DNA from: a virus
Length of the DNA stretch: 29,125 nucleotides
IMG/VR virus record: IMGVR_UViG_3300036770_000791
Coordinates: 1-29,125 of that record
Reading direction: 5' to 3' (one strand)
The notes beneath the pieces were generated by a model. That model worked only from the letters and a program-made list of their open reading frames with translations, searched no databases and was not told the DNA's origin. This document shows, one piece after another, positions 1,637 through 22,200 of this stretch (positions within the stretch are counted from its first letter, which is position 1; every line of letters begins with the position of its first letter). The translations under genes and the position numbers were made by a program.

Positions 1637-2541
1637 GTAACGTAACAGTTTTTAACGCAAACAAAGCCCCTGCATTTGCTAAGTCGCGTGGGCTGTCCAC
1701 CATAGCTAAATCACTTACTGGTGGTGGCGGTGCGAGTGGTAAGAACATCTCCATCAAAGGCGGTGTGTTTCGTTTGATTAGCGACGGTAAAGAGATCGCT
1801 GCGATTGATGATCGTCACCTTGACGTTGTGGTTGTTGCTGCTGCCCCCAAGGTTGGGCGTACGTTTTACATGGGCAAGTATGAGGAAGGTAAGACCACAT
1901 CTCCCTCGTGCTGGTCTGCTGACGGTGATAAGCCTGACGCATCGGTACAAGAACCACAACACGCTAACTGTGCGGACTGCCCCCAGAATATTCAAGGTAG
2001 TGGTGAAGGTACAAGCCGTGCCTGTCGTTTCTCTCAGCGTATTGCTGTGGTGCTTGCTAATGATGTTGAGGGTGATCCCTTGGCGTTGTCACTTCCTGCC
2101 ACTAGTATTTTTGGTAAAGAAGTGAATGGCGACATGCCGCTCCAAGCTTACGCACGTTGGCTGGCTGCACAGAACATCAACCCTGAAGAAGTTGTCACGC
2201 GTCTGCGTTTTGATACCAAGGCTGCTGTACCCAAGCTTTACTTCAAGACCATGCGTTGGCTGACTGATGAGGAGTTTGCGTCAGTGACAACCCACATGGA
2301 AGCACCTGCTACGCAGAAGCTTGTGGTGATGTCTTTCCCAGCGCAGCAACAAGTCGCTGCCCCTGCTGCACCGCAGATCGAGGGCTCACGTCCTAAAGCC
2401 GCAGCTAAGAAGAAAGCTGAAGTCGTTGAGGATGCAGGTGATGACGAGCCTGAAGTGCGCAAAGAGTCAGCCCCTACTAACGCAGTACCCAAGAAGTCTG
2501 GGATTGCTGCTACTGTAGATGCTTGGGATACCGACGACTAA
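1633..2541 (+). CDS. Probable single-stranded DNA-binding protein with four-cysteine cluster
   Basis: A 302-residue protein. The N-terminal half is beta-rich (NISIKGGVFRLISDGKEIAA near 38-57, then LDVVVVAAAP). It carries C93, C113, C116 and C131 in a spacing suited to one zinc ion, with CADCPQN in the middle. From about residue 235 it becomes Ala/Pro/Lys-rich and disordered, and it ends in an acidic aromatic tip, DAWDTDD. An OB-like beta core plus flexible linker plus acidic tail is the plan of phage and bacterial SSBs, and T4 gp32 also binds zinc inside its DNA-binding core. Function is inferred from layout and from position between helicase and primase genes, not from a recognised SSB motif. 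Starts at an ATGA overlap with the previous gene. Confidence 0.7.
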   Translation: MSNVTVFNANKAPAFAKSRGLSTIAKSLTGGGGASGKNISIKGGVFRLISDGKEIAAIDDRHLDVVVVAAAPKVGRTFYMGKYEEGKTTSPSCWSADGDKPDASVQEPQHANCADCPQNIQGSGEGTSRACRFSQRIAVVLANDVEGDPLALSLPATSIFGKEVNGDMPLQAYARWLAAQNINPEEVVTRLRFDTKAAVPKLYFKTMRWLTDEEFASVTTHMEAPATQKLVVMSFPAQQQVAAPAAPQIEGSRPKAAAKKKAEVVEDAGDDEPEVRKESAPTNAVPKKSGIAATVDAWDTDD

Positions 2542-5891: not shown

Positions 5892-6108
5892 CCCAATCAT
5901 CCCGTGGGAGCATATCCCACGGGGAGGTGGCTTCTTCATCCCTACGCTCAACCCACAACAAACGATTGAGCAAGTCTTTCGCTCAGCAACTGAGCACCAT
6001 ATCTTTTACGTCAAGCACACCACGTGCATTGTCAACGGGCGGCTAGGCGTTTATTTTCAGAGACAGCAGCTATCATATCCTTGGCAAAAGCAATCCGCTC
6101 AGCCCTGA
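5854..6108 (+). CDS. Small phage protein with IPRGGGFFIP motif, convergent overlap with giant gene
   Basis: A short ORF overlapping the end of the primase-helicase by 38 nt and the 3' end of the opposite-strand giant gene by 77 nt. The core, IPWEHIPRGGGFFIPTL, then an amphipathic helix and NGRLGVYFQRQ, looks like a compact beta-alpha-beta phage protein: Gly-rich turn plus FFIP, and a closing RLGVYF strand. I have an impression of similar small phage ORFs but cannot name a family. ATG 5854 gives 84 residues; a GTG at 5833 would give 91. No Shine-Dalgarno sequence is clear, and the extreme C-terminus (after about 6065) looks unconserved. The DNA for IPWEHIPRG contains a 9-bp palindrome, so the region may act as RNA structure instead. 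Confidence 0.5.
   Translation: MQSESQCQKSKTDPIIPWEHIPRGGGFFIPTLNPQQTIEQVFRSATEHHIFYVKHTTCIVNGRLGVYFQRQQLSYPWQKQSAQP
5901..5923. promoter_or_regulatory. 9-bp perfect hairpin at the convergent transcription junction
   Basis: CCCGTGGGA (5901-5909) pairs perfectly with TCCCACGGG (5915-5923) across a GCATA loop. It begins 10 nt after the stop of the primase-helicase gene. No T-run follows on either strand, so it is not a canonical intrinsic terminator, though it could pause polymerase or protect 3' ends of both converging transcripts. Confidence 0.45.
5981..5995. promoter_or_regulatory. Second small hairpin in the convergent junction
   Basis: GCTCAG (5981-5986) and CTGAGC (5990-5995) form a 6-bp stem with a CAA loop, 37 nt past the stop codon of the giant leftward gene. 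No T-run follows. It may help end the leftward transcript; it could also be coincidental coding sequence of the small ORF. Confidence 0.3.
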
Positions 6109-9100
6109 TCTCATCAAGCTCTTTGCGCTTTTGCGCAGGGGTCATGCCCGGATCTTCACGCACGATACGTTCTTCCTTGGCAAGATCACCCATTTTTTTC
6201 TTGAAGCGCCCTGCGTCTTTAGTCAGGTCAAGCAGGTACTCATTTTCTTTGTAAAAGATGTCTGCGTCTGCTTCACGTCCTGTGGCTTCAAGTTCCTTGA
6301 GCGTACGCTGGCGTTGCTGAATGTCATACACCTGCTCATAGGCGAAGTTGATAAGGCCCGTTGCGTCTTTAGGCTGGAACAGCCCACCAATCAGAATCGT
6401 ACCGCTAGCGCGTGTCTCAGGTTTAACCTTGGTCGGCTCCTCAAGCACAGGGTTAGCCACACTCATCAGCGCAGGCACAAGCCCACCGAAATATCCGCGC
6501 ATCAGGTGGTCAATCTCGATGGGAGACAGGCCGTATTCTTTAGAACCAACAGTGACTGTGGTCATCTTGCTGAGCAGCTTGGACACTTCTGTGGTGTTCT
6601 GGCGCACACGTTCTGCTTTGGTCAAATCAAGCTCACGCTCACTCTCAATCGCCCGTCCACCAAAGAAGGAGTAATTCACAGCAACTTCAAGTGCTGGCTT
6701 GATGAACTGCGGCAGTCCAATAGGTATGCTGTTAACGACCATTGACTTGAGCGCAGGGATGTTTTTCTGCAACGTTTCATCTGTGGTCGCCATGTTGTAC
6801 ACCATCTCTGGCAGCGACTTAAAGATATAGCCAAGTTCAAACGGAATGGGTACGCGCAGAGGCTCACTGACACCGGGGATATATACAAAGAAGTTGTTGT
6901 ACTTCTCATCAGCCGGTGCGTTCTGATACGCCTCATCGTCCTGCATCAACATGGCATAAGCTATGGCAGTAGCGGCAAGCATCGCGCCACGTGTCATTAA
7001 CTTCTTACGCACATTGAGTTGATCCTGCCCATACATCTTGCCAGTGAAAGCGCGGTACACCACGTCCAGACCTTGTATCTGTGCGTTCATGAACGGCACT
7101 AACATGCTCAGCATATAAGCTGTTGGGGAGTACCCACGCCGTCCGAAGTTCATTGACTCCAGCGCACCGAGGGTGGCTTCCATCTCCGACATACCTTTGG
7201 CACGGAAGTCCTCGTACAGTGTCATACGTGTGGCAGCATCTGCCTTCATCGACAGCTCGTCCAGACGTGCAAGCTGGAAGTTCAGGGTCTTGCCGCCTTT
7301 AGCCAGATCACGCAGCAGCTTCGCCATATCTTCTGACGAGCCTGTAATAGTCTGACCACCAAACACTCCACGTTTTTTCAGTATCTCCTCAACATTGCTT
7401 GTGCCTTTAACCATTGAGGGGAACTGTTTGATTGCCGAGTACACAGGCGTAATGTCAGCGCCAGTCACCAACGCCGCTGCACTGGTATCCCGCACAATCT
7501 GACGCAACATATACACAGGGTTACGAGTAACAAACTTACGTAGTACCTGTGCTGGACCTGTAAACATCCGTGCCATAAACGGCAGCGTCATTGATACGCC
7601 CTCAAGCCCTTTGACCAAGATACTTGCGTCAATGCCAAGCTCGTCAAGCTTCTCCTCGCTAAGCACGGCTGACTGCGTTTCTCCGTTAACTTTAAAGCGC
7701 ACGACGTTCGGACCTTCAGGCTTAGCGTCAGGCTTAATCTCAGCAAACCCCAGCGCTTTGAGCGAAGTTGCCACACGGCTTGACGCTAAGTTGCGCAGGG
7801 CCATGTCCGTCAGGATGGTGGTGTTCTGAACCGAGCTGGTAAAGAAGTCAACGATGTGCTCGTTCCCACCAACAAGTTCACGTAGGTACGGCTGCTCTTT
7901 CAAGCTGCCAATATTGATGGGCACATCTTCTGTACCAATGCTTAAGAACACCTGTTCCTTCTTCTCATCAACACGGTAGAAGGGGATGTAGTCTTTGGTA
8001 GCGTTGAGTGTTTTTGCAAGATCTTTGGAAATAGCGCCCGTAGCCTCAAGGAAGTTGATGAGGTTCTTGTTGTACTCGTTGTATTGAGTACGTGCTTTTT
8101 CAAAGGCGTCTTTGATCTCAGGCTTGGAGTTGATGTATGCGTCAACGTCCTTCAGCATGTCCACCGAGATACCCCCCTTGGCGGGATCCGTATTAAAGTT
8201 CAGCTTGCGCAGCCCCACGCTTGGGTTGTTCTTAGCGCGTTGGTGGGCCATGTAGGTTGTAAACAAACGGTTGGCAGCGTCAGCGTCAATGCCTGACTCG
8301 CGCAAAGACTCAGAGATCTCGCGCAGACTTACGCCAAACCCAGCCTCTGGGATGAACTCCATACTGCCGTCAGCTTTGGGGCGCTGCACCATCTTCATAC
8401 CGCCGTGGTTGACCACAGCAGACGTAAAGTTCATGCGCTGGTCGTGCATCCGTGAGTAGTACACAGCCTCAAACATCTGCTGAGCTTGTGCCAGTTCGTT
8501 GTCCTTGGCGTACTTGAGCACTTGCTCAAGCGGATCTAGCCTGTCCACAAACCGCGCTCTAAACTCTCCACCACGCAGGGTATTTTTTAACCGCTCAACA
8601 ACACCTTGCTCAGCGCCCGTGATTCGCTGAACAGTGTCCGCAACATTGGCAGGCATATCAGCGGGGTAGTTGACCGAGAACAATACTTTAGGCGTTGTGC
8701 CTTTTGTGCCCAGTACGTCTTTAACACCTTCTTTAAGGTCACTTACTTCTGCGGCTGTAAGGATTTGCTGGTTTTTATCGTAGAAGTTAACGTAGTTAGC
8801 AGCTTTTGCGCCTTGGTGTTTATTGCCTGCAATTCCGTAAGACCAGAGTAATTCAGCCGTTGCTTTTTGTAATTGAGTGTGTGCCGCCCCTTCTCGAAAA
8901 TACGGGTCTTTTGCAGAAGCAATAATAAGTTTTTTTCGATCACTAGTGCTGCTTTTGGAAGCACTACCAAACAAAGGCTGTTGCGCGTATAAATACGCAG
9001 GAAATAAATTTGCAGCAAATAAACGGTTGTTTTCTTTGTCAAGCAATTCTTTTAACATGGCAGCATCTTCAGGATTCGCCAAATCATTTAACAACGCATC

Positions 9101-12100
9101 AAAAGAGTTTTGTACGTGTTTGGATTGTTCGCTTAGCGGTTTTTCTAGTTCCCAGTATTCATCTTCTTTACGCTCACGAATAACGCGTTTTAGATACGTG
9201 ACAGGTTTGTTTTGAATCACTTCGTATTCAAACGAAAAATCTTTTAAAATATTGTACAGCTCTTTAAAAGATATATTGTTATAAGTAGTAATACTTGAAC
9301 GCTCTTTTAGTTCTCTGAACAAAGCATTAACAAGCTCAGTTTTGTCGTTTGAAATTAAAGCATCGTATAGATCTTTTCTTTTATATTCCTTCCCAAACTT
9401 AACAGCTAAAGCAATATAATCTGAAATCTCGTCAGCTATTTCGCTAATAACATTTGATTTATTGCGTCTTTCACGATTTTCAACGCTAAGAGTATTTAGC
9501 CAATTGTCAAATGCCTTGTCTCTTATGGCGGACAGCTCTGCACGCGTTTTTCCATTAAATTTAACGCCTGTCTCTTTATCAAATTTTATTTCGGGCGTAC
9601 GGGCTATTTTTTTCTCTAATTCTTGTCTAGCATAACTAAGCGCAGTCCCCGGTCTAGTAGCCGTGTACGTGCCCCACATATACGCTTGCATACCTTCGCC
9701 AGTGCCCATGTATGAATGGTCGAACTCTTGGAACGTAACCCCCGTGCCATGCCATTCACCACGCAGTTCAAAATCAGCAGCACCGTACGCAAAGTCCACA
9801 AAATCTTGCGCGGTCATGTTCTTAATTTGTTTGGCAAAGTCAGGCCCAAGCAACTTGCCAATAATCTTCTTGAAGTTCTCGTACAGGCGGTACAAGAAAC
9901 CTGCGACTGGGCCTTTACCTTTTTCTGTGGGGTTAACGCCAGCTATAACAGCTTCTTCTACAAAATAAGCAAGTATCTCGTCATCACGTGTTTCAACATC
10001 AGGTGTTTCATCTGCAAACGCATAATTAACGCGCTGCATGGCTGCTTTAGCAATCTTGGATTCTTGTGATCCGTCGCCACGCTTAGCCCAAGTCTCAACC
10101 TGATTAACAAGCGCTTTGTATTGCGCATCGCCCAACATATTACGGAAGCCAACGTGCGCACCTACCTCATGGAGGAATACCGCAAGCTCTTGTCCTTTTG
10201 GGATATTGCTGGCGATTAGATACACTTCGCCATACGGTGTTACGAAACCACGAGCGTCAGTTGGGACGTTGTAGTATTCGCCAATGTTTTTCCCAAGAGA
10301 TTTAACGTCAGGGTAAACGTATACGTTTTTGTTATCCCAATCGGTTACTAAGGGGAATGCCCCTTGAATAACTTTACGAACCTCTGCAACCGTCGTTGGG
10401 TTTTCTACCTGCCCACGTGACTTCAGGATGCCCTTGCGTTCAAAGTACGCCCTTACGCTCTGCGCTTGCGGCACATTTTCAAGCTCAGACATATGCGCCA
10501 TTGCATTACGTCTTGCATCGCGCAGAGCACGTGCGTATTCCGCACTCTTAAACCCATAATCTTTAGCTGCCTTCTTAACATCAGGCGCTGAGTAAGACAT
10601 GGCATCAATTTCATATTGCAGCTTGGCTGCTTCTGTGGCCCGTGTCTTTGGCGTACCTTTTGGCTTGTTAAAGTTTTCATCAATGATGGCAGCAATACGC
10701 TCGTTAGAAGCATTAATCAAGGTTTGAATTTCCTTGATGGCTTCCAGACGATTGTCTTTAGCCGTTATGAGCGTGTCGCGTAGTGGTCCTTCAATTTTAG
10801 TTTTCTTACCTTTTGCAGCAAGCGCTTTATCGATGGCTTTGATCTCGTTTTTGTATACGCCTACTTGTGCAGCAAGCTGTTCTTCAGAAATGCGGGGGAT
10901 GGATTTATCTGCACGTACCGTACCCATCCTAGCGTTTTCAAGTGCTTGGGCAAGTTCAAGCGCCTGAAGGTCAACATTGCCGCCTGTGGCCTCAAATATT
11001 TCTTTTTGCTCAAGCAGTAATTTCTTTGTCTTACCCAACCGAGCGCGTTGTGCGCCTTTGGCCTCGGCAATTTGTTTATCAATATCTTGAATACGCTGCT
11101 CGTATTTTTGTTTTTCCTTTTCGGTAGCTTCTTGAACTCTGCCAAGCTGTGCTTTCTCAAGCGCTTCTAAATTAAACGGCGCAGCAGTAATGGGTTGCAC
11201 ATCAAGACGTTGAACAGGTTGATCTTGCAGTATGGCAAGGTCTTGCCGAAGCGCTTCCATTTTGCCGTAAAGCGCAGCCATCTTACTTGTAGCTGGACCT
11301 ACCTTATCTTGTTCTCCCTTCTCAACTTGTTTCTTAAGCTTGGACAACTGACTACGGATGTTCTTAACTTCGCGGTCGTACTTCTTCTTAAGCTCAATCG
11401 TATCTTCGTCAGTTTCAACGACAACGTCCTTACGTTCAACTTTTGTTCCCGGTAACCCAAGACCAACCTTGACGCCAACTTCAGCTTCTTTAGTTTTAGC
11501 GCGGAGGTCGGCTATCCTACGTTGCGTAGTTTCAAGTATTGCGATATTGCGTCGAGCAATGGCTTGAGGTTGTGCAGCTTTACGTTCGGCCACACGTGTT
11601 TCTTTTTCTGCTTGAAGCGATTTAAGTAATTTTATTTCAGCTTGCAAACGCTTGTTTACAGCAACTTCAGCGTTTGCTAAAAGTTTATCCTCCGTAGCCG
11701 GGGACGCTTCTTTAATCTCATTTCTCAAAGCTTCTAAGTCAGAACGCAGGTCTGCAAGATACGCGTCCGCTGCTGCACGGTCTTTATCAGGGATATAGTA
11801 TTCAGCGCGGTTTGCTTTCTCAACAATCGACTTGTATTGTTTTGTTTTAGCTGCAAGTTCTTGTGACACAGCTTGCGCAATTGTTTGAAGATCCTTTAAC
11901 CCTTCTGCATTGATGCGCTTGATAGCATCTTGTTGCACCTGTGCAGCAGTCTTTGCAACATCTTTACCTATTTCGGTAATTAAGCGATCAAGATTTTTTT
12001 CTGAAGTTGCGTCAGCAACTTTTCTGTCCTCAACAACAGTTTCAATTTTTCTCTTAGCGTCGTCTAATTGCTTACGCATATTAGAAACTTTTAGCGACCC

Positions 12101-15100
12101 AAGAAAACGCATAAACGCTTCTGGGGTTTTACGTATAGTTGCGCGAGGCTCAAGTAGTTTTTCAGGAAACAATTCTCTTTGTGCCCCGCCAACTTCTGGC
12201 GCAGCAGGTACTTCTTCTTTTTCCTCAGCAGCAACTGCTGCTTTACGTGGTGCAGGCTCAATCCCCGGCAGCGTAAACTGCTCACCGGGAATAAACGAAC
12301 GAGCTGGACGTGCCTCACGTGCCAACGCTTTATCACGAATCTCTGCAAGTTCTTCTTGCGTCACAAATAGCGCACGTGCAAATGGACGTGCTGCCTGTGT
12401 GCCAGCCTTCATATCAAAAGCAAGCTGCTCGCGGGTGATGTTCTTACTGGGTGTAAAGCGTGGTAATTCTTGTGGCCTACGGCTTTCTTCTACAACTTTT
12501 TCGTAACGTGCGCTACGGATAACTTTGCCCTGCCGCATCACAGCAGGCTCGACAAGTATTTCAGACACTTTACGGGTCACAGGGTCGTACTCTTGCGCCC
12601 GGATCATCAGCTCGTCCATCTTTTTGGCAAGCTGTTTAGTTAACGCATTGCGTTCTTCAGGGGTAACTCCACGCACCCCTTCTGCACGTCGTGCAGCATC
12701 AATTTCATCGATAGTATTAGTAATGTAGTTGTTACGGTACGTTACAGCTTGCTGAAGTGCATCTTTACGTTTTGCAAGTGAATCTTTCTTAAACTGTTCA
12801 AACGTAGGCATCATGTATTCCTGCCCACGCGCTGCGGCTTCTTCAGCCATTGACGATACGTAGTAACGATACCCGCGCTCAGTCTGCCCTAGTTTTGTCT
12901 GACGTAACTCATCAAGGGCAGAAGCAAAATTACTAAACTCCTGATCCTGACGACTCTGTGCATCTTTAATAGACTCACGTGCTTTTGCCCCGCCAACCTT
13001 GACCTTGGCTTTAATCTGCTCAATTTCTGTATCACGCTGAGTAACTGTTTGCAGTGCAGTGTCATATCGTTGTTGTGCTGCGGCAAGTTGTTCTTCGCTA
13101 GCTTCAGGCTGCGCAGTGAGCGCGTCAAGTGCTGTCTTGGCTTCTTGTGACTGCTTAACTGCCGCATCACGTTCCTTCTGAAGCTTGGCTATACGCAGTG
13201 CGTCATCGCCACGAACTAACAACTCCTCAGCAGGTGCCCCGAGATCTTCAACGCGCTTCTCAGGTTGATTCCGTTTGAGCGTGTCTAACTCATTGATTCG
13301 TACCTGTGTAGCAAACGCCTTCAAACCATCAGGCGTAAACGTATTGTCAGGCGTTACAAGTTGCTTATCTTCTGCAAGATAACTCTGTAATTTCTCACGC
13401 TCTTGTGCAATACGCGCTTCAATCTGATCAATAGACTGAAGCCCCAGTGACTTCTTTACAAGCGGCGATAGTTCACCTGTACGAACAGCGTCCATATACT
13501 GGGCACGTTCTTCGGGTTTTGTCAGCCCTAGTGCACGGAGACTTACAGGACTATCAAGCGAACGCTCCACACGCTGGAGGGCAATGTCTTCAGTTTCTGC
13601 CGAACCCATCATGAGCTTGGCTAGTTGTTTTACATCACGGCGAGCTTGTTCTTCCGCAGCACGTGCTTCTTCCCCACGCATCTTTTCTTGGCGCTCAGCC
13701 ATGCGCCCTTCCAAGGTTTCTGCTGTCTTAACGGGGGGCAGCTCTGCTTGATAACCAGTGTCAACTTCTTCTGCTGTACGTTCTGCACGTCTGGTTGCTT
13801 CAGGGTATGCAAACCCTGCTGGCGTTTCCATGAACAGTTGTTCACCACCAACCTGCGGTGCTTGCGCTTCAAGCCGCTGACGTTCAGCGCGTAGCGTTTT
13901 AATTTTCTGCGCAAGTTCTCCAGCCTTTTGACTTTCGCCAAGCTCGGCTTGCTTTTGCATATTCTTGAGCAGCTTAGCTTCTTCAGCCTGTAGTGCCTTG
14001 AGCGCTTCCATCGGATCAGGCACAGCGTTAATAGACGCTAGCTGTTCTTCAATCTGTTTACGCCCTTGGATTAATGGCGATAGTTGCTGGCTCATTGCCG
14101 CAACAGCATCCACGTCACCCGTCTGCGTAGCCTGTGCAATTTGTTTTTGGTAATCCTCTATTGCGCGAGATACACGCGCATAGTCTTGCTGTAACTCTTG
14201 GGTTTCTTGTGTGCGATCTACAACAGGCGCAGGAGCCTGCATTTGCGGCCCTGTCACAGCAGCTTCAGCTAAATCTAAAGCTCGTTGGTCCGCAGCAAAC
14301 AGAGGCACCCCTGCTTCTTCTGCACGACGTTGGCGGTCTGCAAGCTCTGCCGCTTCAACTTTGCCCCTTTCTTCTTCAGCACGTCTACGTGCAACTTCTT
14401 GCTTTATCTTTGTTTCAGCCCGTGCCTGTTCACTACCACGCTCAAAGTATCGACCTACTGGAGATATAGCGCCGCCCAGCACTGCACCGCCAATAAAACT
14501 GTCCACGTACTCACGACGTGCGTCAGCGTCTGCAATCTTTAAGCCAGCTTGTAAACGCTCAATAAACTGCTGGCCTGTTTCTGTAACACCTTCAATCCCG
14601 GCAGTACGCGCACCTGTCGCAGCGTAGTCTGCAAGGACACGCTTATATCCTTGCTTAGCTATTTCTTTAGCTTCGGCTTCTGTAAGTTCTTTACCAACGG
14701 ACTTAAATAAGTTACGGACAAGTGGCAGCGCACGGAAACTAACCACATCAAGCGCAGCTTGCGGCACAGCCGCAATAAAAGCAGTTGCCCCACTGGTCTG
14801 CTCTAGCCCCGCGTTGGGATCAGTACGTTTGACTTCTTCAAGCTGCCTTGCAAGGTTTGATCCTGTGAATTGCGCGGCAGAGGTAAGCCCTGCGGCTGTA
14901 CCGGCAGCTAACGTACCAAGCGTTAATCCACCAACAACAGGAGCGGCAGCGGCAGCGGCGGGTAAAGCAAGCGTAGCCCCGGCAGCGGCAAGCGGCGCCG
15001 CCATATAGGGTAGTGATCCACCTAGCGTTTCTTTAAACTTTTCAAAAGGAGCTTCGGTCCAACTTTTTTCCGTGGGCCTATATATGCGTTGTGCTTCAGC

Positions 15101-15346
15101 CTCACGCTCTGCCTGATACTTCTCTGCTTCAGGCAAACCCATCAAACCTAGTTTACCCGCTGTAAGTGCTGCCTGCCCTTTTAGTGATTCAACGCCTGCT
15201 TTAAAAGCAGGTAAAAATCCGCTTTCGCCTTTAGGTCCAAACTCAGGGTATTTGGCAATAATACGGCGCTTAGCTTCTTCTGGCGTTACGGAATCCGGAA
15301 TGTTTTCAACCAGCGTTCCGTCGGGTAAGCGTATGGAATAAGCCAT
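6032..15346 (-). CDS. 3104-aa giant multidomain virion/polyvalent protein
   Basis: Likely carried in the virion and injected with the DNA. Residues 1-36 (SIRLPDGTLVENIPDSVTPE) form a small beta/alpha domain seen at the start of large phage proteins. A Gly/Ala-rich hydrophobic stretch lies near 113-165 (possible membrane insertion), then long Lys/Glu/Gln coiled coils span about 290-1420. Near 1726 is FLHEVGAHVGF, an HExxxH metallopeptidase-like motif. About 1863-2188 resembles the ADP-ribosyltransferase-like region of phage polyvalent proteins: an HGTG start, GTGEGMQAYMWGTYTA, KPLSEQS, and a closing GI-G...NYVNFYD. From about 2590, TRNPVYMLRQIVRDT and PFMNAQIQGLDVVYRAF match my recall of polyvalent-associated domain LPD38. 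Last gene of the leftward operon, 2 nt after the 537-aa gene, with no clear Shine-Dalgarno. Enzymatic roles are inferred; no lytic transglycosylase motif was recognised. Confidence 0.88.
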   Translation of the reverse strand: MAYSIRLPDGTLVENIPDSVTPEEAKRRIIAKYPEFGPKGESGFLPAFKAGVESLKGQAALTAGKLGLMGLPEAEKYQAEREAEAQRIYRPTEKSWTEAPFEKFKETLGGSLPYMAAPLAAAGATLALPAAAAAAPVVGGLTLGTLAAGTAAGLTSAAQFTGSNLARQLEEVKRTDPNAGLEQTSGATAFIAAVPQAALDVVSFRALPLVRNLFKSVGKELTEAEAKEIAKQGYKRVLADYAATGARTAGIEGVTETGQQFIERLQAGLKIADADARREYVDSFIGGAVLGGAISPVGRYFERGSEQARAETKIKQEVARRRAEEERGKVEAAELADRQRRAEEAGVPLFAADQRALDLAEAAVTGPQMQAPAPVVDRTQETQELQQDYARVSRAIEDYQKQIAQATQTGDVDAVAAMSQQLSPLIQGRKQIEEQLASINAVPDPMEALKALQAEEAKLLKNMQKQAELGESQKAGELAQKIKTLRAERQRLEAQAPQVGGEQLFMETPAGFAYPEATRRAERTAEEVDTGYQAELPPVKTAETLEGRMAERQEKMRGEEARAAEEQARRDVKQLAKLMMGSAETEDIALQRVERSLDSPVSLRALGLTKPEERAQYMDAVRTGELSPLVKKSLGLQSIDQIEARIAQEREKLQSYLAEDKQLVTPDNTFTPDGLKAFATQVRINELDTLKRNQPEKRVEDLGAPAEELLVRGDDALRIAKLQKERDAAVKQSQEAKTALDALTAQPEASEEQLAAAQQRYDTALQTVTQRDTEIEQIKAKVKVGGAKARESIKDAQSRQDQEFSNFASALDELRQTKLGQTERGYRYYVSSMAEEAAARGQEYMMPTFEQFKKDSLAKRKDALQQAVTYRNNYITNTIDEIDAARRAEGVRGVTPEERNALTKQLAKKMDELMIRAQEYDPVTRKVSEILVEPAVMRQGKVIRSARYEKVVEESRRPQELPRFTPSKNITREQLAFDMKAGTQAARPFARALFVTQEELAEIRDKALAREARPARSFIPGEQFTLPGIEPAPRKAAVAAEEKEEVPAAPEVGGAQRELFPEKLLEPRATIRKTPEAFMRFLGSLKVSNMRKQLDDAKRKIETVVEDRKVADATSEKNLDRLITEIGKDVAKTAAQVQQDAIKRINAEGLKDLQTIAQAVSQELAAKTKQYKSIVEKANRAEYYIPDKDRAAADAYLADLRSDLEALRNEIKEASPATEDKLLANAEVAVNKRLQAEIKLLKSLQAEKETRVAERKAAQPQAIARRNIAILETTQRRIADLRAKTKEAEVGVKVGLGLPGTKVERKDVVVETDEDTIELKKKYDREVKNIRSQLSKLKKQVEKGEQDKVGPATSKMAALYGKMEALRQDLAILQDQPVQRLDVQPITAAPFNLEALEKAQLGRVQEATEKEKQKYEQRIQDIDKQIAEAKGAQRARLGKTKKLLLEQKEIFEATGGNVDLQALELAQALENARMGTVRADKSIPRISEEQLAAQVGVYKNEIKAIDKALAAKGKKTKIEGPLRDTLITAKDNRLEAIKEIQTLINASNERIAAIIDENFNKPKGTPKTRATEAAKLQYEIDAMSYSAPDVKKAAKDYGFKSAEYARALRDARRNAMAHMSELENVPQAQSVRAYFERKGILKSRGQVENPTTVAEVRKVIQGAFPLVTDWDNKNVYVYPDVKSLGKNIGEYYNVPTDARGFVTPYGEVYLIASNIPKGQELAVFLHEVGAHVGFRNMLGDAQYKALVNQVETWAKRGDGSQESKIAKAAMQRVNYAFADETPDVETRDDEILAYFVEEAVIAGVNPTEKGKGPVAGFLYRLYENFKKIIGKLLGPDFAKQIKNMTAQDFVDFAYGAADFELRGEWHGTGVTFQEFDHSYMGTGEGMQAYMWGTYTATRPGTALSYARQELEKKIARTPEIKFDKETGVKFNGKTRAELSAIRDKAFDNWLNTLSVENRERRNKSNVISEIADEISDYIALAVKFGKEYKRKDLYDALISNDKTELVNALFRELKERSSITTYNNISFKELYNILKDFSFEYEVIQNKPVTYLKRVIRERKEDEYWELEKPLSEQSKHVQNSFDALLNDLANPEDAAMLKELLDKENNRLFAANLFPAYLYAQQPLFGSASKSSTSDRKKLIIASAKDPYFREGAAHTQLQKATAELLWSYGIAGNKHQGAKAANYVNFYDKNQQILTAAEVSDLKEGVKDVLGTKGTTPKVLFSVNYPADMPANVADTVQRITGAEQGVVERLKNTLRGGEFRARFVDRLDPLEQVLKYAKDNELAQAQQMFEAVYYSRMHDQRMNFTSAVVNHGGMKMVQRPKADGSMEFIPEAGFGVSLREISESLRESGIDADAANRLFTTYMAHQRAKNNPSVGLRKLNFNTDPAKGGISVDMLKDVDAYINSKPEIKDAFEKARTQYNEYNKNLINFLEATGAISKDLAKTLNATKDYIPFYRVDEKKEQVFLSIGTEDVPINIGSLKEQPYLRELVGGNEHIVDFFTSSVQNTTILTDMALRNLASSRVATSLKALGFAEIKPDAKPEGPNVVRFKVNGETQSAVLSEEKLDELGIDASILVKGLEGVSMTLPFMARMFTGPAQVLRKFVTRNPVYMLRQIVRDTSAAALVTGADITPVYSAIKQFPSMVKGTSNVEEILKKRGVFGGQTITGSSEDMAKLLRDLAKGGKTLNFQLARLDELSMKADAATRMTLYEDFRAKGMSEMEATLGALESMNFGRRGYSPTAYMLSMLVPFMNAQIQGLDVVYRAFTGKMYGQDQLNVRKKLMTRGAMLAATAIAYAMLMQDDEAYQNAPADEKYNNFFVYIPGVSEPLRVPIPFELGYIFKSLPEMVYNMATTDETLQKNIPALKSMVVNSIPIGLPQFIKPALEVAVNYSFFGGRAIESERELDLTKAERVRQNTTEVSKLLSKMTTVTVGSKEYGLSPIEIDHLMRGYFGGLVPALMSVANPVLEEPTKVKPETRASGTILIGGLFQPKDATGLINFAYEQVYDIQQRQRTLKELEATGREADADIFYKENEYLLDLTKDAGRFKKKMGDLAKEERIVREDPGMTPAQKRKELDEIRAERIAFAKDMIAAVSENKRLAAR
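8830..9660 (-). other. AT-rich segment inside the giant gene, within the ART-like region
   Basis: This stretch is markedly AT-rich: 9241-9300 holds 13 G/C of 60, while 8401-8460 just outside holds 34 of 60. It encodes about residues 1895-2172, the interior of the ART-like region, and is richer in Lys, Asn, Ile and Tyr than its surroundings. The frame is unbroken. It suggests separate acquisition of this module. Confidence 0.6.
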
Positions 15347-15348
15347 GT

Positions 15349-16962
15349 TTAGATATTGCCAAAATTAATGACACGTTGTCCAGAGGCGCCCGTCGCCCCA
15401 CCAACATACTGCTTCTTCCAATCAGCATAATCAGGAAATGGTTTGTCGCGTGTTTTGCGATCTTCCATATGGGCTTGTCTAGCTTTATTGTACTCACGTA
15501 CAAGTGTATCTTCGTCTAGCCCACCAGCAGCTCCAGTGCCACGTCTCATTTGCAGTATGTCAGTAATTGGTTTGCCCGTCTCTTTTGCAATCATCTGCAA
15601 TGTACGGAACTCCGGAGGCGGCATTTTGGCAACACGTTCCTGTACATCAAGTGAAGCCTTAGAAATAGCTTTTCTAGTCTCATCGTCCATCGTCTGCCAT
15701 TTATCCTGCATCGCAAGACGCACCGCTTCACGACGTTCAATAGACGCAAGCTCCTTTTCCTTCTCCAACTCAGCAGAAGAACCTTTAACCAACTCAATAG
15801 CTTCCGCACGACGCGCACGTTCAATGGCAGACTGCATCTGGTTCATCGCCATCTTATAGGTGCGATCTTCTGCACGTTGCGCTGCCACATCTTTGCCCAA
15901 CGCCTGTGCAGCCGCACCAATTGCTCCTTTACGTGGCGCAGCAGCATACGCACCCAATGCGTTCGCTAAAGCACCAAGTCCAGCAGACTCGCGCTGTTTC
16001 TTGTATTCCTCTTGCATTTCCTTAAGACGCGCTTCTTCTGCTTCACCACCAAGTCCTGCAACACCCATTTCTTTAAGCGCGTCCCGTCGTCCTTGGATAA
16101 TGTCTTTTAAACTACGTTGCTGATATTGCGCAGGTAAAAATTGAGCCAATGGGTCAGTTCCGGGGGCTGCATTAGCCTCCATCATTTGATTTTGAATTAA
16201 CTCTTCTGGTGAAATAGCAGGAACATTTGGCCCTGTCGGTAACGCGGGTTGTGCCCTTTGCCCACCCAGAGCGCGTTGGGGGGATGGTGTAGCGGCGGAG
16301 GGGGGTGCTGGGCGATTACGGAAAGTAAAATCAGGTCCAGATATATCTTGAGTATAAGAGGGCATACTTGCAGCGGGAGCTTTTGGAGGAGGTGGAACAT
16401 TCCCTAACAGCCTTGCACGAATGCCGTTTGCTCGTCGTATTTCAGACGGTGTAGCGGTACCTTCTGCAATTTTCTGTTCAATTTCTCGCAAAATATCGCG
16501 CTCATCTTTTGAGCTAGCGCTTATAAGTGATTCGCCAAACAACGAGCGATCTTCAGGGGGACGCCCTGAAATATTCATACGCGGTGCTCCCCCAACCAAA
16601 CTGCCGTCAGTAAGCCCCTGATAACGCTCAACACGCCCACCATCTTCAAAAGCAACAATCCCCCCACTAGCAAACCCTCGCTCCATGTTGGGCGCGGGTA
16701 GTGAAGCTACACCTTGCATTTGCGGAGGTGGGGCTGGAGGACGAAAAGCTTGTTCAATACCTTGCTTAACAGTGGGTTGTTGTTGCGGATTTTGTTGCAT
16801 AGCAGCAGATTGTTTGGCATCTTGCTCCATCTTTTTTCGACGTTGCAATTCACCCAGCGCAATGTAGGGCGGCACCTCGGGGTTGGTTCCGTTGGCATAC
16901 TGCATAACAGCTTGAAGGGGCATCCCCTTCAAACGCTCAGAAATTTGAATAAGGTTAAGCAT
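15349..16962 (-). CDS. 537-aa probable internal virion protein
   Basis: A 537-residue protein of unknown function, probably structural. The N-terminus (MLNLIQISERLKGMPLQAVM) is a short helical segment, then a Gln/Pro-rich linker. Around 94-125 is GFASGGIVAFEDGGRVERYQ, a glycine-rich 'GGIVAFxDGG' motif common in environmental phage structural proteins. A Pro-rich linker follows (about 187-245), then a charged helical region (RLKEMQEEYKKQRE to the AEAIELVKGSSAELEKEKEL segment) with an AGLGALANALGAYAAAP hydrophobic patch. It sits between the 29-residue-repeat protein and the giant protein with 2-nt gaps on both sides, so it is likely made with them and could form part of the injected inner core. 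No enzymatic motif seen. Confidence 0.8.
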   Translation of the reverse strand: MLNLIQISERLKGMPLQAVMQYANGTNPEVPPYIALGELQRRKKMEQDAKQSAAMQQNPQQQPTVKQGIEQAFRPPAPPPQMQGVASLPAPNMERGFASGGIVAFEDGGRVERYQGLTDGSLVGGAPRMNISGRPPEDRSLFGESLISASSKDERDILREIEQKIAEGTATPSEIRRANGIRARLLGNVPPPPKAPAASMPSYTQDISGPDFTFRNRPAPPSAATPSPQRALGGQRAQPALPTGPNVPAISPEELIQNQMMEANAAPGTDPLAQFLPAQYQQRSLKDIIQGRRDALKEMGVAGLGGEAEEARLKEMQEEYKKQRESAGLGALANALGAYAAAPRKGAIGAAAQALGKDVAAQRAEDRTYKMAMNQMQSAIERARRAEAIELVKGSSAELEKEKELASIERREAVRLAMQDKWQTMDDETRKAISKASLDVQERVAKMPPPEFRTLQMIAKETGKPITDILQMRRGTGAAGGLDEDTLVREYNKARQAHMEDRKTRDKPFPDYADWKKQYVGGATGASGQRVINFGNI

Positions 16963-16964
16963 AG

Positions 16965-19226
16965 TTAGCCACCATAGTACGTAAACCCGCCAGGACCGGA
17001 TGTTCCCCCAAGGCTTTCAAGCGAAGTGCCTGAAAACAAATCGCTGATGTCAAAACCAGCATTCTTTAAGTTTGCTGCAATCGACGCTAGCCCCGCAGCA
17101 TTCTGAAGTGCGCTTGGGCCTTGTTGATAATACTGAGACGTAGCGATAGGGAGCCCCTGCATTAAACTTTGGCGCAACTTAAGCATTTCCATAGGATACT
17201 GATACTGTTCACGTTGAAATTCTGCTCTGTCTCTATCAATAGCAGCTTGGCGAATAGCTTGTTCTTGTGCCCCCATACCGTACATGGCTTGTAAACGAGA
17301 AATATCTCCAGCCTGCCCTTGGAGCCCTATATCTGCCAAAGCACGATTTGCAGCAAGCTGTCGATCAAGCGCGGATAGCCCGAGCTGTGCCTGTTGCTGC
17401 TTTGCCTGTTCTCCCAAGCGTTGTGCTTCCAAGCCATACTGTGCTGTTTGCTGCGCAGACGTCATACCTTGTTGGGCTCCAAACTGACGAGATTGTTCAC
17501 CTAAACGCAAACCTTCTAAACCATACTGCGCAGCCTGCTGTGCAGCCGTCATGCCTTGTTGCGCACCAAACTGGCGCGATGCTTCCGCAGCACGTTGAGC
17601 GTCGAGTCCAAATTGCGCAGCCAATTGTGCAGCCGTCATGCCTTGTTGCGCACCAAATTGTTGTGCTTGTTCTCTAGCTCTTGCTGCCTCTAACCCTAGC
17701 TGACCCGCTGTTTGTGCAGAACTTAATGCTTGCGCTCCTGCTGCTTGACGTGCAGCTTCCTGGGCTGTTAATGCTTGTAACCCTAACTGCGCTCTTGTTT
17801 GAGCTTCTTGAGAAGTTAATCCCGCACCAAATTGTTGTGCTTGTTCTCTAGCTCTTGCTGCTTCTAATCCTAATTGGCCCGCTGTTTGAGCAGATGCTAG
17901 TGATTGTTGACCTGCTGCCTGACGTGCAGCTTCCTGGGCTGTTAATGCTTGTAACCCTAACTGCGCTCTTGTTTGAGCTTCTTGAGAAGTTAATCCCGCA
18001 CCAAACTGCCCAGACTGTTCCCTAGCTCTTGCTGCCTCTAACCCTAGCTGACCCGCTGTTTGTGCAGAACTTAATGCTTGCGCTCCTGCTGCTTGTCTAG
18101 CTGATTCCGTTGCTGTTTGAGCTTGAAGCCCAAGTTGAGCGGCTAATTCAGCCGACCGTGCACCAAGCCCAGCACCAAACTGACGAGATTGTTCTCCAAG
18201 CTGCTGTGCTTCAAGTCCTTTTTGTATATTTAATTGCTGCGCCGTAGTACGGCGAGCTTGATCACGTTCAAATTGTTGTTGAGCATTTAAGAAAGCTTCT
18301 TGCTGCCCTTTGCCGTAAATATCCCCCAATTGCGTAGCAAGGTTGCGATTAAGTTCAGCTTCTGAAATAGCCTGACGTGACCCTCCAAACGATCCAGCTT
18401 TTGCCATACGAGCGGCATTTTGCATCCGAGTGATGTCTGCCTGCCTACGAGCTTCACGCAACTGTGGATCAATAACTCCTTCTGTATAAGGAGACATATA
18501 TTCTTGAGCTTGCGCTTGTCCGAATTTTTCAGCAGTAGCTCTTTCTGGGGTAAACGTACCCGCTTGATAAGCCGCTGGAGCTTGATAATTTGAAGTAACC
18601 GCATTTGCTTTATACAAATCCCCCGGAGCTTGATAAGTGCTTTGAATATTTGTTCCCGTATAAGGCGCAGTTCCTTGGTATGTAGATCCTATAGCCCCAG
18701 CTTTATACAAATCCCCCGGCGCTTGATAAGTGTTTTGAATATTCGTTCCCGTATAAGGCGCAGTTCCTTGGTATGTAGATCCTATAGCCCCAGCTTGATA
18801 AATATTGCTAGGAGCTTGATAGCCACTTTGAACGTTTGTGCCTTGATACGCAGTCGGCGAGGTAAAGCCGGACGTAAAATTTCCAGGAGTAAAAGCTGTG
18901 GGGGCATTAAACTGATTGCCAAAAGTACCTGCTGTATACGCAGCGGGGGCATTAAATTGATTGCCAAAGGTGCCTGCTGTATATCCTGAACTAACACTAG
19001 TAGCAGGAGTCTGTAAATTTGATATTGCCGTTTGTGTACCTGTCGGAACCGTTAACGATCCTATGCCCGTAAGCGCTGTAGTTTGGGGGGTGGTAAACCC
19101 TTCCGATAACGGTTTGTCGTACGAAGTGTATGGCAAATTAGCAAACGCCTCACCTTGTTGAAGCAAGCGTTCAACATAAGGCCCAGCCCATGAAGATAGC
19201 GTTGAAGATACAGTTGAGTCAGCCAT
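16965..19226 (-). CDS. 753-aa repeat protein, probable inner-core/ejection protein
   Basis: A 753-residue low-complexity structural protein with two repeat regions. The N-terminal third has Tyr/Thr/Gly beta-type repeats (AGTFGNQFNAP twice; a 31-residue GAIGSTYQGTAPYTGTNIQ unit twice). A conserved-looking segment, YMSPYTEGVIDPQLREARRQ then AKAGSFGGSRQAISEAEL, follows at about 240-300. Next are nine consecutive 29-residue Ala/Gln-rich helical repeats (FGAxxGMTAAQxAAQxGLxA type), then a helical C-terminus ending GPGGFTYYGG. GAGGT lies 4-5 nt before the ATG, and 2 nt separate it from each neighbour. Long Ala/Gln helices and position after tail genes suggest an ejection protein forming a tube or core, comparable in place to T7 gp15. 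Function is inferred. Confidence 0.82.
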   Translation of the reverse strand: MADSTVSSTLSSWAGPYVERLLQQGEAFANLPYTSYDKPLSEGFTTPQTTALTGIGSLTVPTGTQTAISNLQTPATSVSSGYTAGTFGNQFNAPAAYTAGTFGNQFNAPTAFTPGNFTSGFTSPTAYQGTNVQSGYQAPSNIYQAGAIGSTYQGTAPYTGTNIQNTYQAPGDLYKAGAIGSTYQGTAPYTGTNIQSTYQAPGDLYKANAVTSNYQAPAAYQAGTFTPERATAEKFGQAQAQEYMSPYTEGVIDPQLREARRQADITRMQNAARMAKAGSFGGSRQAISEAELNRNLATQLGDIYGKGQQEAFLNAQQQFERDQARRTTAQQLNIQKGLEAQQLGEQSRQFGAGLGARSAELAAQLGLQAQTATESARQAAGAQALSSAQTAGQLGLEAARAREQSGQFGAGLTSQEAQTRAQLGLQALTAQEAARQAAGQQSLASAQTAGQLGLEAARAREQAQQFGAGLTSQEAQTRAQLGLQALTAQEAARQAAGAQALSSAQTAGQLGLEAARAREQAQQFGAQQGMTAAQLAAQFGLDAQRAAEASRQFGAQQGMTAAQQAAQYGLEGLRLGEQSRQFGAQQGMTSAQQTAQYGLEAQRLGEQAKQQQAQLGLSALDRQLAANRALADIGLQGQAGDISRLQAMYGMGAQEQAIRQAAIDRDRAEFQREQYQYPMEMLKLRQSLMQGLPIATSQYYQQGPSALQNAAGLASIAANLKNAGFDISDLFSGTSLESLGGTSGPGGFTYYGG
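17397..18179 (-). repeat. Nine tandem 87-bp (29-residue) repeats in the 753-aa gene
   Basis: The segment divides exactly into nine 87-bp units, each coding 29 residues with no insertion or deletion. Two unit types alternate at first (FGAGLTSQEAQ... and AAGAQALSSAQ...), giving a 174-bp superrepeat: 17747-17831 and 17921-18005 are identical over 85 bp. The last three units are of the FGAQQGMT type. Recent duplication is likely for the superrepeat. Confidence 0.9.
18608..18793 (-). repeat. Two adjacent 93-bp direct repeats
   Basis: Positions 18608-18700 and 18701-18793 differ at three bases and code a 31-residue Tyr/Thr/Gly unit (GSTYQGTAPYTGTNIQ core). Near-identity including third positions points to a recent duplication in the N-terminal part of the 753-aa gene. 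Confidence 0.9.
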
Positions 19227-19228
19227 AA

Positions 19229-22200
19229 TTACCTCGGTATAAATTTAGCAGGATTTATTTGTTTTCCCTGTTTTTTATTGCCTGTTCTTGCAACGCGAAT
19301 GCGATCCATCATCTGGTACAACACTTTAGCTCCAGCGTTGGAATTACCGTTACCTAAATGGCTTACCACATCGGCAGGAATCACAAACTCACCATCACTA
19401 AGTGCAGCAGGGCGTCGTCCATCAATACTGGCAGGAACTTTATCAGCCATACCATCTGAATGTCCACCTAAATACCTTGGGGATAGCGTACGCCCACCCC
19501 GCGTCATTGCCAATCCAGCGAGTCCACCTTGGTTATACCCAGCCACAATGTCATCAATTAATCCACCCGAAGCACCGCCGGGAGCGTTGATTGTTTTACC
19601 GCCCAAGTTATAAACAGTACCGCCATATTGCTGGGCGGCTTGGTCGGCTTCCTGCTGCGTGTCGTACCAGGAATAAGTTGGCGTTCCAGACATGCTTGGC
19701 GTTCTGACAACAAATTGTCTTGTGACGTCTCCAGCCATTTGCGGGGAGAGTGTTGCCAAGTTCTCCGATGTTGCGAGATCAAGTCCGAGCTTTTGTGCAA
19801 GTGCTTGAGATGCTGCAAGGCTATCCGTGGCTCCTGGCCCTTTTTGCGCGGCAAACGGATCTTGCGTCCAGTCGTATGCGGCGCCAAGCTTATTTGCGGC
19901 AATGTCAGCAAAGTTAACACCGTGGCCTGATCCGGTGCCAGGGTAAAGCTGTCCAGGCTTATAGTTAATGCCAGCAGCGTCAAGTTTTTGACCTAACGAA
20001 CCAATGCCGCCGAGGTTGATGCCAAACTCATTCGCATTTTTGTAAAGGTCCTCGGCACTGACAATACTTCTTCTCAGCCGATTACCCTGAGGGTCGTAGT
20101 ACCCAAGCTCGCCATCTTCCATGGATACGCCATAACCGCTCTTGGGGTCTCGGTAAATATAAGGGTTACCTGTCTTGGCAAACCAATCCTCATCGGCCAG
20201 AGGTGGCGGATTCTCGTAAGCATACTTGGCGGCAGCGGCTTCGGCGTTAATGCCCTTCATGGTCTCGTTAAGCCAGTTGGTGTCCTTGCCGCCGTAATAG
20301 TTTGCTATGTCACGGTTCCACCAATCGTTGGGGAAGGCAACCTTTAGTGCTTCGACGTTGTTGAGGAATCGATCCTTGCGAAGCTGCTCTGACCGCAACC
20401 CTGCCTGTGCATATTCTTCGGCTGTCATTGGGACGACATTCTCAGATACGCTTTGGGCAATGTCGGCCACTGAGCTTGGTATCGACTTAGGCTCTATAGC
20501 GGGTTGGGCCGTCTTGACGGTATTAGTGACGCCTGGGACGGCTGTTGATGCCCCCGCAACAAACCCTGCTCCTTCATATCCTGCCGGAGGTGTATACGTG
20601 ATTGGCCCAAAACGCTGAAAGTACGGATCTTCAAAATAATCGTAGTCTTTTGGCGGGGCAGTATATGTACGTGATGCAGTCCACGGCTGCTTTAAGTTAG
20701 GGTTATACCCCGCATCGCCTTTGCCTTCTCCACCAATATTTTTAAAGATTGAAGGAAGTGCAAGTAAACCAACATTAACTTCGCACTTCCCCGTTTTAGG
20801 GTTAAGTGAGTATCCAGTTGGACACGTTTCTGGTTTTGGCTCACATAAACCAGTTGTGGGGTTGCGTACTTGTCCTTCTGGACATGATGTTGATTTAGGC
20901 GTCTCACATAAACCAGTTGTGGCATTGCGTACTTGTCCTTCTGGACAAGTAACAGGCGTATCAATAACAGGCGTCTCGCACAAACCCGTTGTGGCATTGC
21001 GTACTTGTCCTTCTGGACACGTAGACGTTACAGTAACACTAGGCCTACAAAGCCCTGTATCAGGATCGCGTGTTTGTCCTTCTGGACATGCTGTTGATTT
21101 AGGCGTCTCACATAAACCAGTTGTGGGGTTGCGTACTTGTCCAGCAGGACAAGTAACAGGCGTATCAATAACAGGCGTTTCACATAAACCCGTTGTGGCA
21201 TTGCGTACTTGTCCTTCTGGACAAGTTTTTGTTGTTGTAACTTCTACTTTAGGCGTCTCGCATAAACCCGTTGTGGCGTTGCGTACCTGTCCTTCTGGAC
21301 AAGTTTTTGTTGTGTCGTCTGTTACAACAGGCGTATCAATAACAGGCGTTTCACATAAACCCGTTGTGGGATTGCGTACTTGTCCAGCAGGGCAAGTTTT
21401 TGTAGTTGTAACTTCTACTTTAGGCGTCTCACATAAACCCGTTGTGGCATTGCGTACCTGTCCTTCTGGACAAGTTTTTGTTGTTGTTGTTGTTGTGGAT
21501 AAAATAGGCGGATTAACAATATCTGTGTCCCCGGTTAACGACGTCCCTTTTACAACTACCGAGTCGTTTCCTAAACTACTGAGTAAAGAGTCATTCCCCG
21601 CAATGATGTCCTGAATTAATCCATCATCATCAAAATATCCGGGTATGAGGTCTTCTAGCTCAGTATCACTAAGTTTTGTACCAGGAACTTTTACATTACT
21701 GAGCGCACCGCCCACAAAACTAACTGCGGAATTACGTAAAACATCTTGAGCATCGCCCCCAGCAAGTGCCGTTGTTACCCCTGAAGTAATACTACTTTGA
21801 ACTCCGTTTAACACACGGTTTGCTGTTTGGGGGTTTAGATCTAATCCAAGCGTTTCATCTAGGCTGTCAACAATTGAACCGGCAACATTTTGAATAACTG
21901 GTCCTGCTATTGCGTTAAACGCAGTCCCACCGATTGTAGCTATCGCAGCTTTAGCGCCGTCCCCTCCAAGAAGTTCAGCGGTGCCTGCATTAACCGCAGA
22001 AGCTACAAGTGTTTTAGCAACAGTTACCTCAGCCCCCGTTAAACCTAACTGAGAAACAATCTGATTTGTAACGGCTTCTGTTACAGGCTTAGTTATTAAA
22101 CTTGTTGGATTTGTGATGATATTAGCTGCTTCACCAACAGTAAGATTTGAAGCAAGTGACCCAAGCCCTGCTTCTGCGCCTGGCACTGCACTCGCCGCTC

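What the first reader, a model, noticed from the sequence alone, without database searches (positions are those of the whole stretch)
6032..15346. 3104-residue giant protein combining several effector-like modules
A 9.3-kb gene joins a small N-terminal domain, a hydrophobic segment, over 1000 residues of coiled coil, a metallopeptidase-like motif, an ART-like region and an LPD38-like C-terminus. It ends the late operon after other putative ejection proteins, so it may be injected with the DNA to modify host proteins at the onset of infection.
Basis: partly seen in the sequence, partly recalled or inferred. Interest (0 to 1): 0.75.

Follow-up and report, generated by a model that had tools for sequence, protein, structure and literature searches.

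The report
Giant ejected phage protein, swappable modules
This environmental phage carries a 3,104-residue, cysteine-free protein that is very probably shot into bacteria with the viral DNA; it joins a built-in metal-dependent protease, an exchangeable toxin-like enzyme and a large delivery domain, and belongs to a known class whose cutting points may now be testable.

Summary
The gene is real, intact and on the minus strand (15346 to 6032). Domain calls mostly hold. LPD38 is certain (94.7 bits, cut-off 27). A zincin-like HEVGAH domain and an ART-like domain are supported through relatives, though both miss the Pfam cut-offs. The protein is a "polyvalent protein" in the sense of Iyer et al. 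2017 (PMC5512222), so the kind is known.

What relatives add. (1) The roughly 880-aa C-terminal core recurs in at least 586 IMG/VR stretches; all 64 dereplicated homologues carry HExx(x)H upstream of it. (2) The zincin is repeatedly exchanged between three classes on the core tree but never missing. (3) The ART is an optional, fast-evolving cassette (dN/dS 0.35-0.50, against 0.04-0.11 for core and zincin). (4) A five-residue junction motif matches the zincin class: FS[RKV] in 17/17 HEVGxH and 0/44 others. I propose, unproven, that it is the self-cleavage site. (5) The giant and both upstream neighbours lack cysteine, as do the ejected proteins of N4, T7 (gp15, gp16) and P22.

Ejection is well supported indirectly: an LPD38 protein was found in JC1 virions by mass spectrometry. 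Host modification by the ART and any protease activity are inference.

The parts
6032..15346 (-). Giant polyvalent-protein gene, 3104 aa, no cysteine
   Evidence: ORF scan and translation; composition
14327..15346 (-). Conserved N-terminal module, residues 1-340 (E..TE..Q..ER.QAGL signature)
   Evidence: Alignment A5 of 12 homologues; found in 49 of 64 dereplicated giants
14852..15013 (-). Gly/Ala-rich hydrophobic stretch, residues about 112-165, candidate membrane contact
   Evidence: Hydropathy, conserved in A5; inference for membrane role
10547..14326 (-). Long charged coiled-coil-like region, residues about 341-1600, variable in length between relatives
   Evidence: Composition; poor conservation in BLASTP map
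10412..10426 (-). Degenerate upstream border motif LKSRG (residues 1641-1645); relatives have xFSRGxP here
   Evidence: Alignment A6; 14 of 17 HEVGxH proteins have [FLY]S[RKV] here, this one does not
9782..10411 (-). Zincin-like domain, residues about 1646-1855
   Evidence: A2/A6 alignments; hhalign to the other zincin classes and, through them, to N4 vRNAP C1
10154..10171 (-). HEVGAH (residues 1726-1731), invariant HE.G.H
   Evidence: lies in a predicted helix
9977..9979 (-). E1790, invariant, candidate third zinc ligand on a following conserved helix
   Evidence: ligand role inferred
8717..9781 (-). ART-like cassette, residues about 1856-2210 (H1866, Y1894, NYVNFYD 2184-2190)
   Evidence: PF18760 sub-threshold; A3 alignment; related L041 passes the PF18760 cut-off at the A3-matched site; cleanly absent in L015
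8672..8686 (-). Junction motif VLFSV (residues 2221-2225), candidate cleavage site or cassette border
   Evidence: L and S invariant in 25 of 25; FS[RKV] in 17/17 HEVGxH and 0/44 others
6035..8671 (-). C-terminal core, residues 2226-3104, alpha-helical, no PDB match
   Evidence: A9 alignment of 61; AlphaFold2 pLDDT 80.9, pTM 0.77; Foldseek PDB none at E<=0.001; BFVD TM 0.88 to LPD proteins
6425..6937 (-). LPD38 (PF18857), residues 2804-2974
   Evidence: hmmscan E 9.5e-27
15349..16962 (-). Upstream neighbour, 537 aa, cysteine-free; candidate co-ejected protein
   Evidence: 23 of 23 homologues cysteine-free; role inferred
16965..19226 (-). Second upstream neighbour, 753 aa, cysteine-free; candidate co-ejected protein
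   Evidence: 41 of 43 homologues cysteine-free; role inferred

Best explanation
The gene encodes a phage polyvalent protein packaged in the head and ejected through the tail with, or just ahead of, the DNA. The N-terminal module and the large LPD38 core form the constant delivery chassis (inferred from conservation, gene position, cysteine exclusion and analogy with N4 virion RNA polymerase). The zincin between coil and core is an obligate part of the chassis that most likely cuts the chain at short linker motifs ([FYL]S[RK] before the zincin, xLFS[RKV] before the core), freeing the effector from the chassis once the protein has been delivered or is being matured (inferred; no cleavage has been seen). 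The ART-like cassette is the variable payload and most likely ADP-ribosylates a host macromolecule at the start of infection (inferred from family knowledge). Shown here: modular architecture, obligate but exchangeable zincin, optional fast-evolving ART, class-matched junction motif, cysteine exclusion, fixed genome slot.
For: LPD38 E 9.5e-27. All 64 dereplicated homologues carry HExx(x)H, 59 at the expected distance from the core; only 5 such motifs in 126,343 other residues, and those belong to the remaining proteins with longer inserts. On the core tree the zincin class changes 19 times, with at least 9-12 changes per class forced by starred branches, and a zincin is never absent; neighbouring classes are homologous (hhalign E 8e-12 and 2e-12). 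Junction motif FS[RKV] in 17/17 HEVGxH, 0/44 others, 9 of 9 independent contrasts, p 0.004; xFR in 24/29 HExxGH, 1/15 HExxH and 0/17 HEVGxH. The same motif lies 84-92 aa before the HE in giants with other cores (L054, L056, L073, L074, L075) and in phage Y7. ART cleanly absent in L015, at least 10 changes of presence on the tree, dN/dS 0.35-0.50 against 0.08-0.11 (zincin) and 0.04-0.10 (core). Cysteine: 13 in 171,143 aa of giants, 52 of 64 with none; primase homologues 14.2 per 1000; N4 gp50-52, T7 gp15/gp16 and P22 gp7/gp20/gp16 have none. Papers link cysteine loss in N4-like vRNAPs to passage through tail and periplasm. LPD38-bearing JC1 gp69 found in CsCl-purified virions with 51 unique peptides.
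Against: No virion proteomics for this phage, whose morphology is not known. N4 vRNAP, with a homologous zincin, is packaged uncut, and its structural study saw no degradation, so zincins in such proteins need not cut themselves. The junction motif was noticed after looking at the data, and the homologue set leans towards near relatives of the window. The window's own upstream motif is degenerate (LKSRG). ART and zincin fail the Pfam cut-offs. Foldseek found no PDB match for the zincin/ART model, though the model was run as one 603-aa piece of moderate confidence.
Confidence: 0.6

Rival explanations
1. The zincin is structural or regulatory rather than self-cutting (as C1 of N4 vRNAP may be), and the junction motif is only the edge of an exchangeable gene cassette or a linker strand that travels with it.
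For: N4 vRNAP is packaged unprocessed (PMC5512222; PMC12633501). Motif and zincin class always change together, as hitch-hiking would also give. The junction motif is predicted as a short strand of low confidence.
Against: In the HEVGxH class the motif sits at both ends of the zincin(-ART) unit and stays put whether or not the ART is there. HE..H and the candidate third ligand E1790 are invariant in 25 rows, as expected of an active metal site.
Confidence: 0.35
2. The zincin is itself an effector that cleaves a host protein or envelope component after ejection.
For: Metallopeptidase effectors are known in conflict systems (discussed in PMC5512222). The zincin class is exchanged often.
Against: It is never lost and is under strong purifying selection between close relatives (dN/dS about 0.1), unlike the ART beside it.
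Confidence: 0.2
3. The giant is a virion structural or tape-measure-like protein of the tail that stays with the particle and is not delivered.
For: Late-gene position; long coiled coil; morphology of this phage unknown.
Against: Cysteine exclusion shared with proven ejected proteins; same genome slot as N4 vRNAP; homology to polyvalent proteins; an ART cassette would be pointless outside the cell.
Confidence: 0.1
4. ART-like and HEVGAH regions are chance resemblances inside a helical structural protein.
For: Both are below Pfam cut-offs in the window protein; no PDB match.
Against: Signature residues conserved across 25 relatives, cassette cleanly present or absent, profile links to bona fide zincin and ART-PolyVal regions.
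Confidence: 0.05

Closest known systems
Phage-type polyvalent proteins with LPD38 (Iyer et al. 2017, PMC5512222)
   Same: LPD38, HEXXXH-type zincin, ART-like domain in one late-gene-encoded giant chain; injection and self-processing already proposed there
   Different: Obligate zincin slot next to the roughly 880-aa core, repeated zincin-class exchange and the class-matched junction motif were not found in the parts of that paper read
DarB-like protein gp69 of Burkholderia phage JC1 (PMC9144972) and BcepMigl gp69
   Same: C-terminal LPD38, late position, cysteine-free (BcepMigl), JC1 gp69 present in virions
   Different: 4515-4658 aa; JC1 gp69 has lytic transglycosylase, methylase-helicase and LPD3 matches instead of the coil and ART
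N4 virion RNA polymerase gp50
   Same: About 3,500 aa, cysteine-free, last late gene converging on replication genes, membrane-spanning N-terminal part, zincin C1 homologous through the HExxH class (E 3e-14) followed by a large helical C-terminal domain without known fold
   Different: Carries an RNA polymerase instead of coil and ART; C2 shows no detectable sequence homology to the core (E 0.15, reversed controls 0.37-0.59)
T7 gp16 / P22 gp16 ejection proteins
   Same: Last and largest of a set of ejected proteins that are cysteine-free (T7 gp14 has one cysteine)
   Different: Much smaller; comparison here is by cysteine content and gene order only
T4 Alt
   Same: Works like: head-packaged ART that modifies host proteins at once
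   Different: R-S-E type ART, separate protein, not a polyvalent chain (PMC5512222)

Membership tests
Polyvalent protein (Iyer 2017) | Several biochemically unrelated domains in one chain | tested here: met
   Zincin-like, ART-like and LPD38 in P0001; zincin and ART rest on profile links through relatives
Polyvalent protein (Iyer 2017) | Phage version encoded among late virion genes | tested here: met
   Late neighbours; syntenic in relatives, primase homologue in 48 of 52 loci
Polyvalent protein (Iyer 2017) | Delivered into the host with the DNA | not testable with these tools
   Indirect only: cysteine exclusion, JC1 gp69 in virions
LPD38 (PF18857) | Score above curated cut-off | tested here: met
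   94.7 bits, cut-off 27; 12 of 12 full-length relatives match
ART-PolyVal (PF18760) | Score above curated cut-off | tested here: not met
   14.7-16.8 bits, cut-off 31.2; a relative, L041, passes with 36 bits
ART-PolyVal (PF18760) | H-Y-D active residues | tested here: inconclusive
   H1866, Y1894 and D2190 invariant in 5 close rows; assignment of the third residue (N2184 or D2190) not settled
Zincin-like MPTase | HExx(x)H plus downstream Glu in a following conserved helix | tested here: met
   HEVGAH and E1790 invariant in 25 rows; helices predicted as expected; zinc binding not tested
MPTase-PolyVal (PF18818) | Profile match | tested here: not met
   No match at E<=10
N4-type virion RNA polymerase | Single-subunit RNA polymerase domain | tested here: not met
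   No polymerase family matches in Pfam or PHROGs
N4-type virion RNA polymerase | C2-type C-terminal domain | tested here: inconclusive
   hhalign E 0.15, near reversed controls
Phage ejection protein | Cysteine-free | tested here: met
   0 of 3104 residues; control proteins of the same phages mostly contain cysteine
Phage ejection protein | Present in the virion and lost on ejection | not testable with these tools
   Needs virion mass spectrometry of a cultured relative

The most novel reading that the evidence does not exclude
The short junction motifs are self-cleavage sites matched to the resident zincin: HEVGxH zincins cut at FS[RK], HExxGH zincins at xFR. Phages swap zincin and cut sites together while the delivery core stays, so the giant is a self-unpacking carrier whose payload cassette is freed from the chassis.
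Probability: 0.3. Interest if true: 0.7.

Novelty: new member of a known kind. Interest (0 to 1): 0.5.

Why it matters
Self-processing of polyvalent proteins was proposed in 2017 without naming cut sites. A class-matched motif at fixed positions gives concrete sites to test. The obligate zincin beside a swappable ART also separates chassis from payload in a family with at least 586 IMG/VR occurrences, and cysteine exclusion plus gene slot gives a simple way to spot ejected proteins in uncultured phages.

Tried and rejected
(1) Foldseek of the zincin+ART model and of the core against the PDB: nothing at E<=0.001, uninformative for the former because it was searched as one mostly helical piece. 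(2) Sequence profiles A2, A3 and A9 against PDB chains: no meaningful hit. (3) Homology of the core to N4 vRNAP C2: not detectable. (4) N-terminal module against N4 NTD: not detectable. (5) Unsupervised motif search at the junction mixed two class-specific motifs and shifted register; replaced by class-wise counts. (6) An FS-type motif generally enriched within known DarB-like proteins: counts do not exceed shuffles; only its position before the zincin of Y7 stands out. (7) Promoter and terminator scan: within the range of shuffled sequence. (8) tRNA genes: none.

Full report
Observation. The 3104-aa ORF is intact on the minus strand, 15346 to 6032. It is the last gene of a minus-strand late block (tail fibre, holin, endolysin, structural proteins) and meets plus-strand replication genes head-on. 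The window is a 29,125-base IMG/VR record, a possible fragment, so host and morphology are unknown.

Architecture. Pfam finds only LPD38 with confidence. The HEVGAH region has no PF18818 match and the ART region is below the PF18760 cut-off. Relatives settle more. A core-based search brought 20 loci at first, then at least 586 matching stretches in IMG/VR but only 3 in 84,980 GTDB species genomes, so this is a phage-borne family seen mostly in environmental viromes. Aligned homologues share the N-terminal 330 residues and the last 880; the middle varies. L015 passes from zincin to core with only about a dozen residues between them: the ART is a clean insert.

Zincin slot. In 64 dereplicated proteins every one has HExx(x)H, 59 at the expected distance before the core, while only 5 occur in 126,343 other residues, and those belong to the other five proteins with longer inserts. 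Nine of the 64 came in through zincin or ART queries; the other 55 were found by core similarity or in annotated phage records, so the result does not depend on that bias. Three classes exist: HEVGxH, HExxGH and HExxH. On the core tree they interchange 19 times, with at least 9-12 changes per class forced by starred branches (quick tree, so counts are approximate). Neighbouring classes are homologous by profile, and the HExxH class matches N4 vRNAP C1 at E 3e-14 against about 0.5 for reversed controls (the HEVGxH class alone does not, E 0.06). Iyer et al. already described HEXXXH variants.

Junction motif. L and S of xLFS are invariant at the cassette/core border in 25 HEVGxH-class rows. FS[RKV] occurs there in 17 of 17 HEVGxH and 0 of 44 other proteins, in 9 of 9 phylogenetically independent contrasts; HExxGH proteins have xFR in 24 of 29. 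A second copy lies 70-120 residues before the HE in 14 of 17, against 10 of 460 background windows. The same spacing (84-92) recurs in giants with other cores and in Pseudoalteromonas phage Y7. The motif was found post hoc, so I treat the proposal as a testable idea, probability 0.3. Both motif sites fall in low-confidence segments of the zincin/ART model.

ART cassette. Between the window and its three nearest relatives the ART has dN/dS 0.35-0.50, the zincin 0.08-0.11 and the core 0.04-0.10. Fast evolution and repeated gain or loss (10 changes) fit a host-facing payload. Other proteins have other inserts at the same place, such as a second ART-like type (L055, L058), a HEVQH domain (L151) or an unrelated segment of about 650 residues or more (L127, L129, L137, L145).

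Ejection. The protein has no cysteine; across 64 giants there are 13 in 171,143 residues, and the gene just upstream is cysteine-free in 50 of 51 cases, while primase homologues have 14.2 per 1000. Ejected proteins of N4 (gp50, gp51, gp52), T7 (gp15, gp16; gp14 has one) and P22 (gp7, gp20, gp16) are cysteine-free, unlike most other virion proteins of the same phages (exceptions are N4 major head protein, P22 scaffold and P22 tail needle). Published work on N4-like phages ties this to passage through tail and periplasm (PMC3915230, PMC3715699, PMC2784036). The LPD38-bearing gp69 of JC1 is in purified virions with 51 unique peptides (PMC9144972). The genome slot equals that of N4 vRNAP and is kept in the lineage: a primase homologue in 48 of 52 loci, typically convergent 100-160 bases downstream.

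Core. AlphaFold2 gives pLDDT 80.9 and pTM 0.77; no PDB match at E<=0.001, but BFVD matches to other LPD proteins reach TM 0.88 and include transglycosylase- and RelA/SpoT-bearing giants and E. coli phage PTXU04.

Judgement. A new member of a known kind. Interest lies in the obligate, exchangeable zincin and the class-matched junction motif, which make the 2017 processing idea testable.

Noticed in passing
window 19229-22696 (-): 1155-aa late protein with repeated TCPEGQVRNATTGLCE units (20 cysteines, CBM_14-like, E 1.6e-10), in contrast to its cysteine-free neighbours.
   Followed up: partly
L127, L129, L137, L145, between HExxH domain and core: An unrelated insert of about 650 residues or more with PWCT(G/A) and GDF(Y/H)IYYENG-like motifs occupies the cassette position.
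   Followed up: no
L151 residues about 2022-2436: A different cassette with a second HEVQH metallopeptidase-like motif replaces the ART.
   Followed up: no
L084:4058-11331: The giant gene is split into two ORFs: the N-terminal module alone (468 aa), then coil, zincin and core (1952 aa), about 8 bases apart; natural fission or frameshift not resolved.
   Followed up: no
window 6035-8671 (-), model mcddbf8e94a07: The 880-aa core is predicted with good confidence yet matches no PDB fold; N4 vRNAP C2 was reported as equally unmatched (PMC12633501).
   Followed up: partly
L035 residues 5888-13762 ORF aa 758-794 and L075 6245-13954 ORF aa 793-830: Weak sigma-70 region 4 / HTH-like matches inside giants with the same zincin but another core.
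   Followed up: no
window 1633-2541 and 1238-1636 (+): Small genes beside the helicase are conserved through the lineage (44 and 43 of 52 loci); the 132-aa one matches a PHROG called minor head protein although it sits among replication genes.
   Followed up: no
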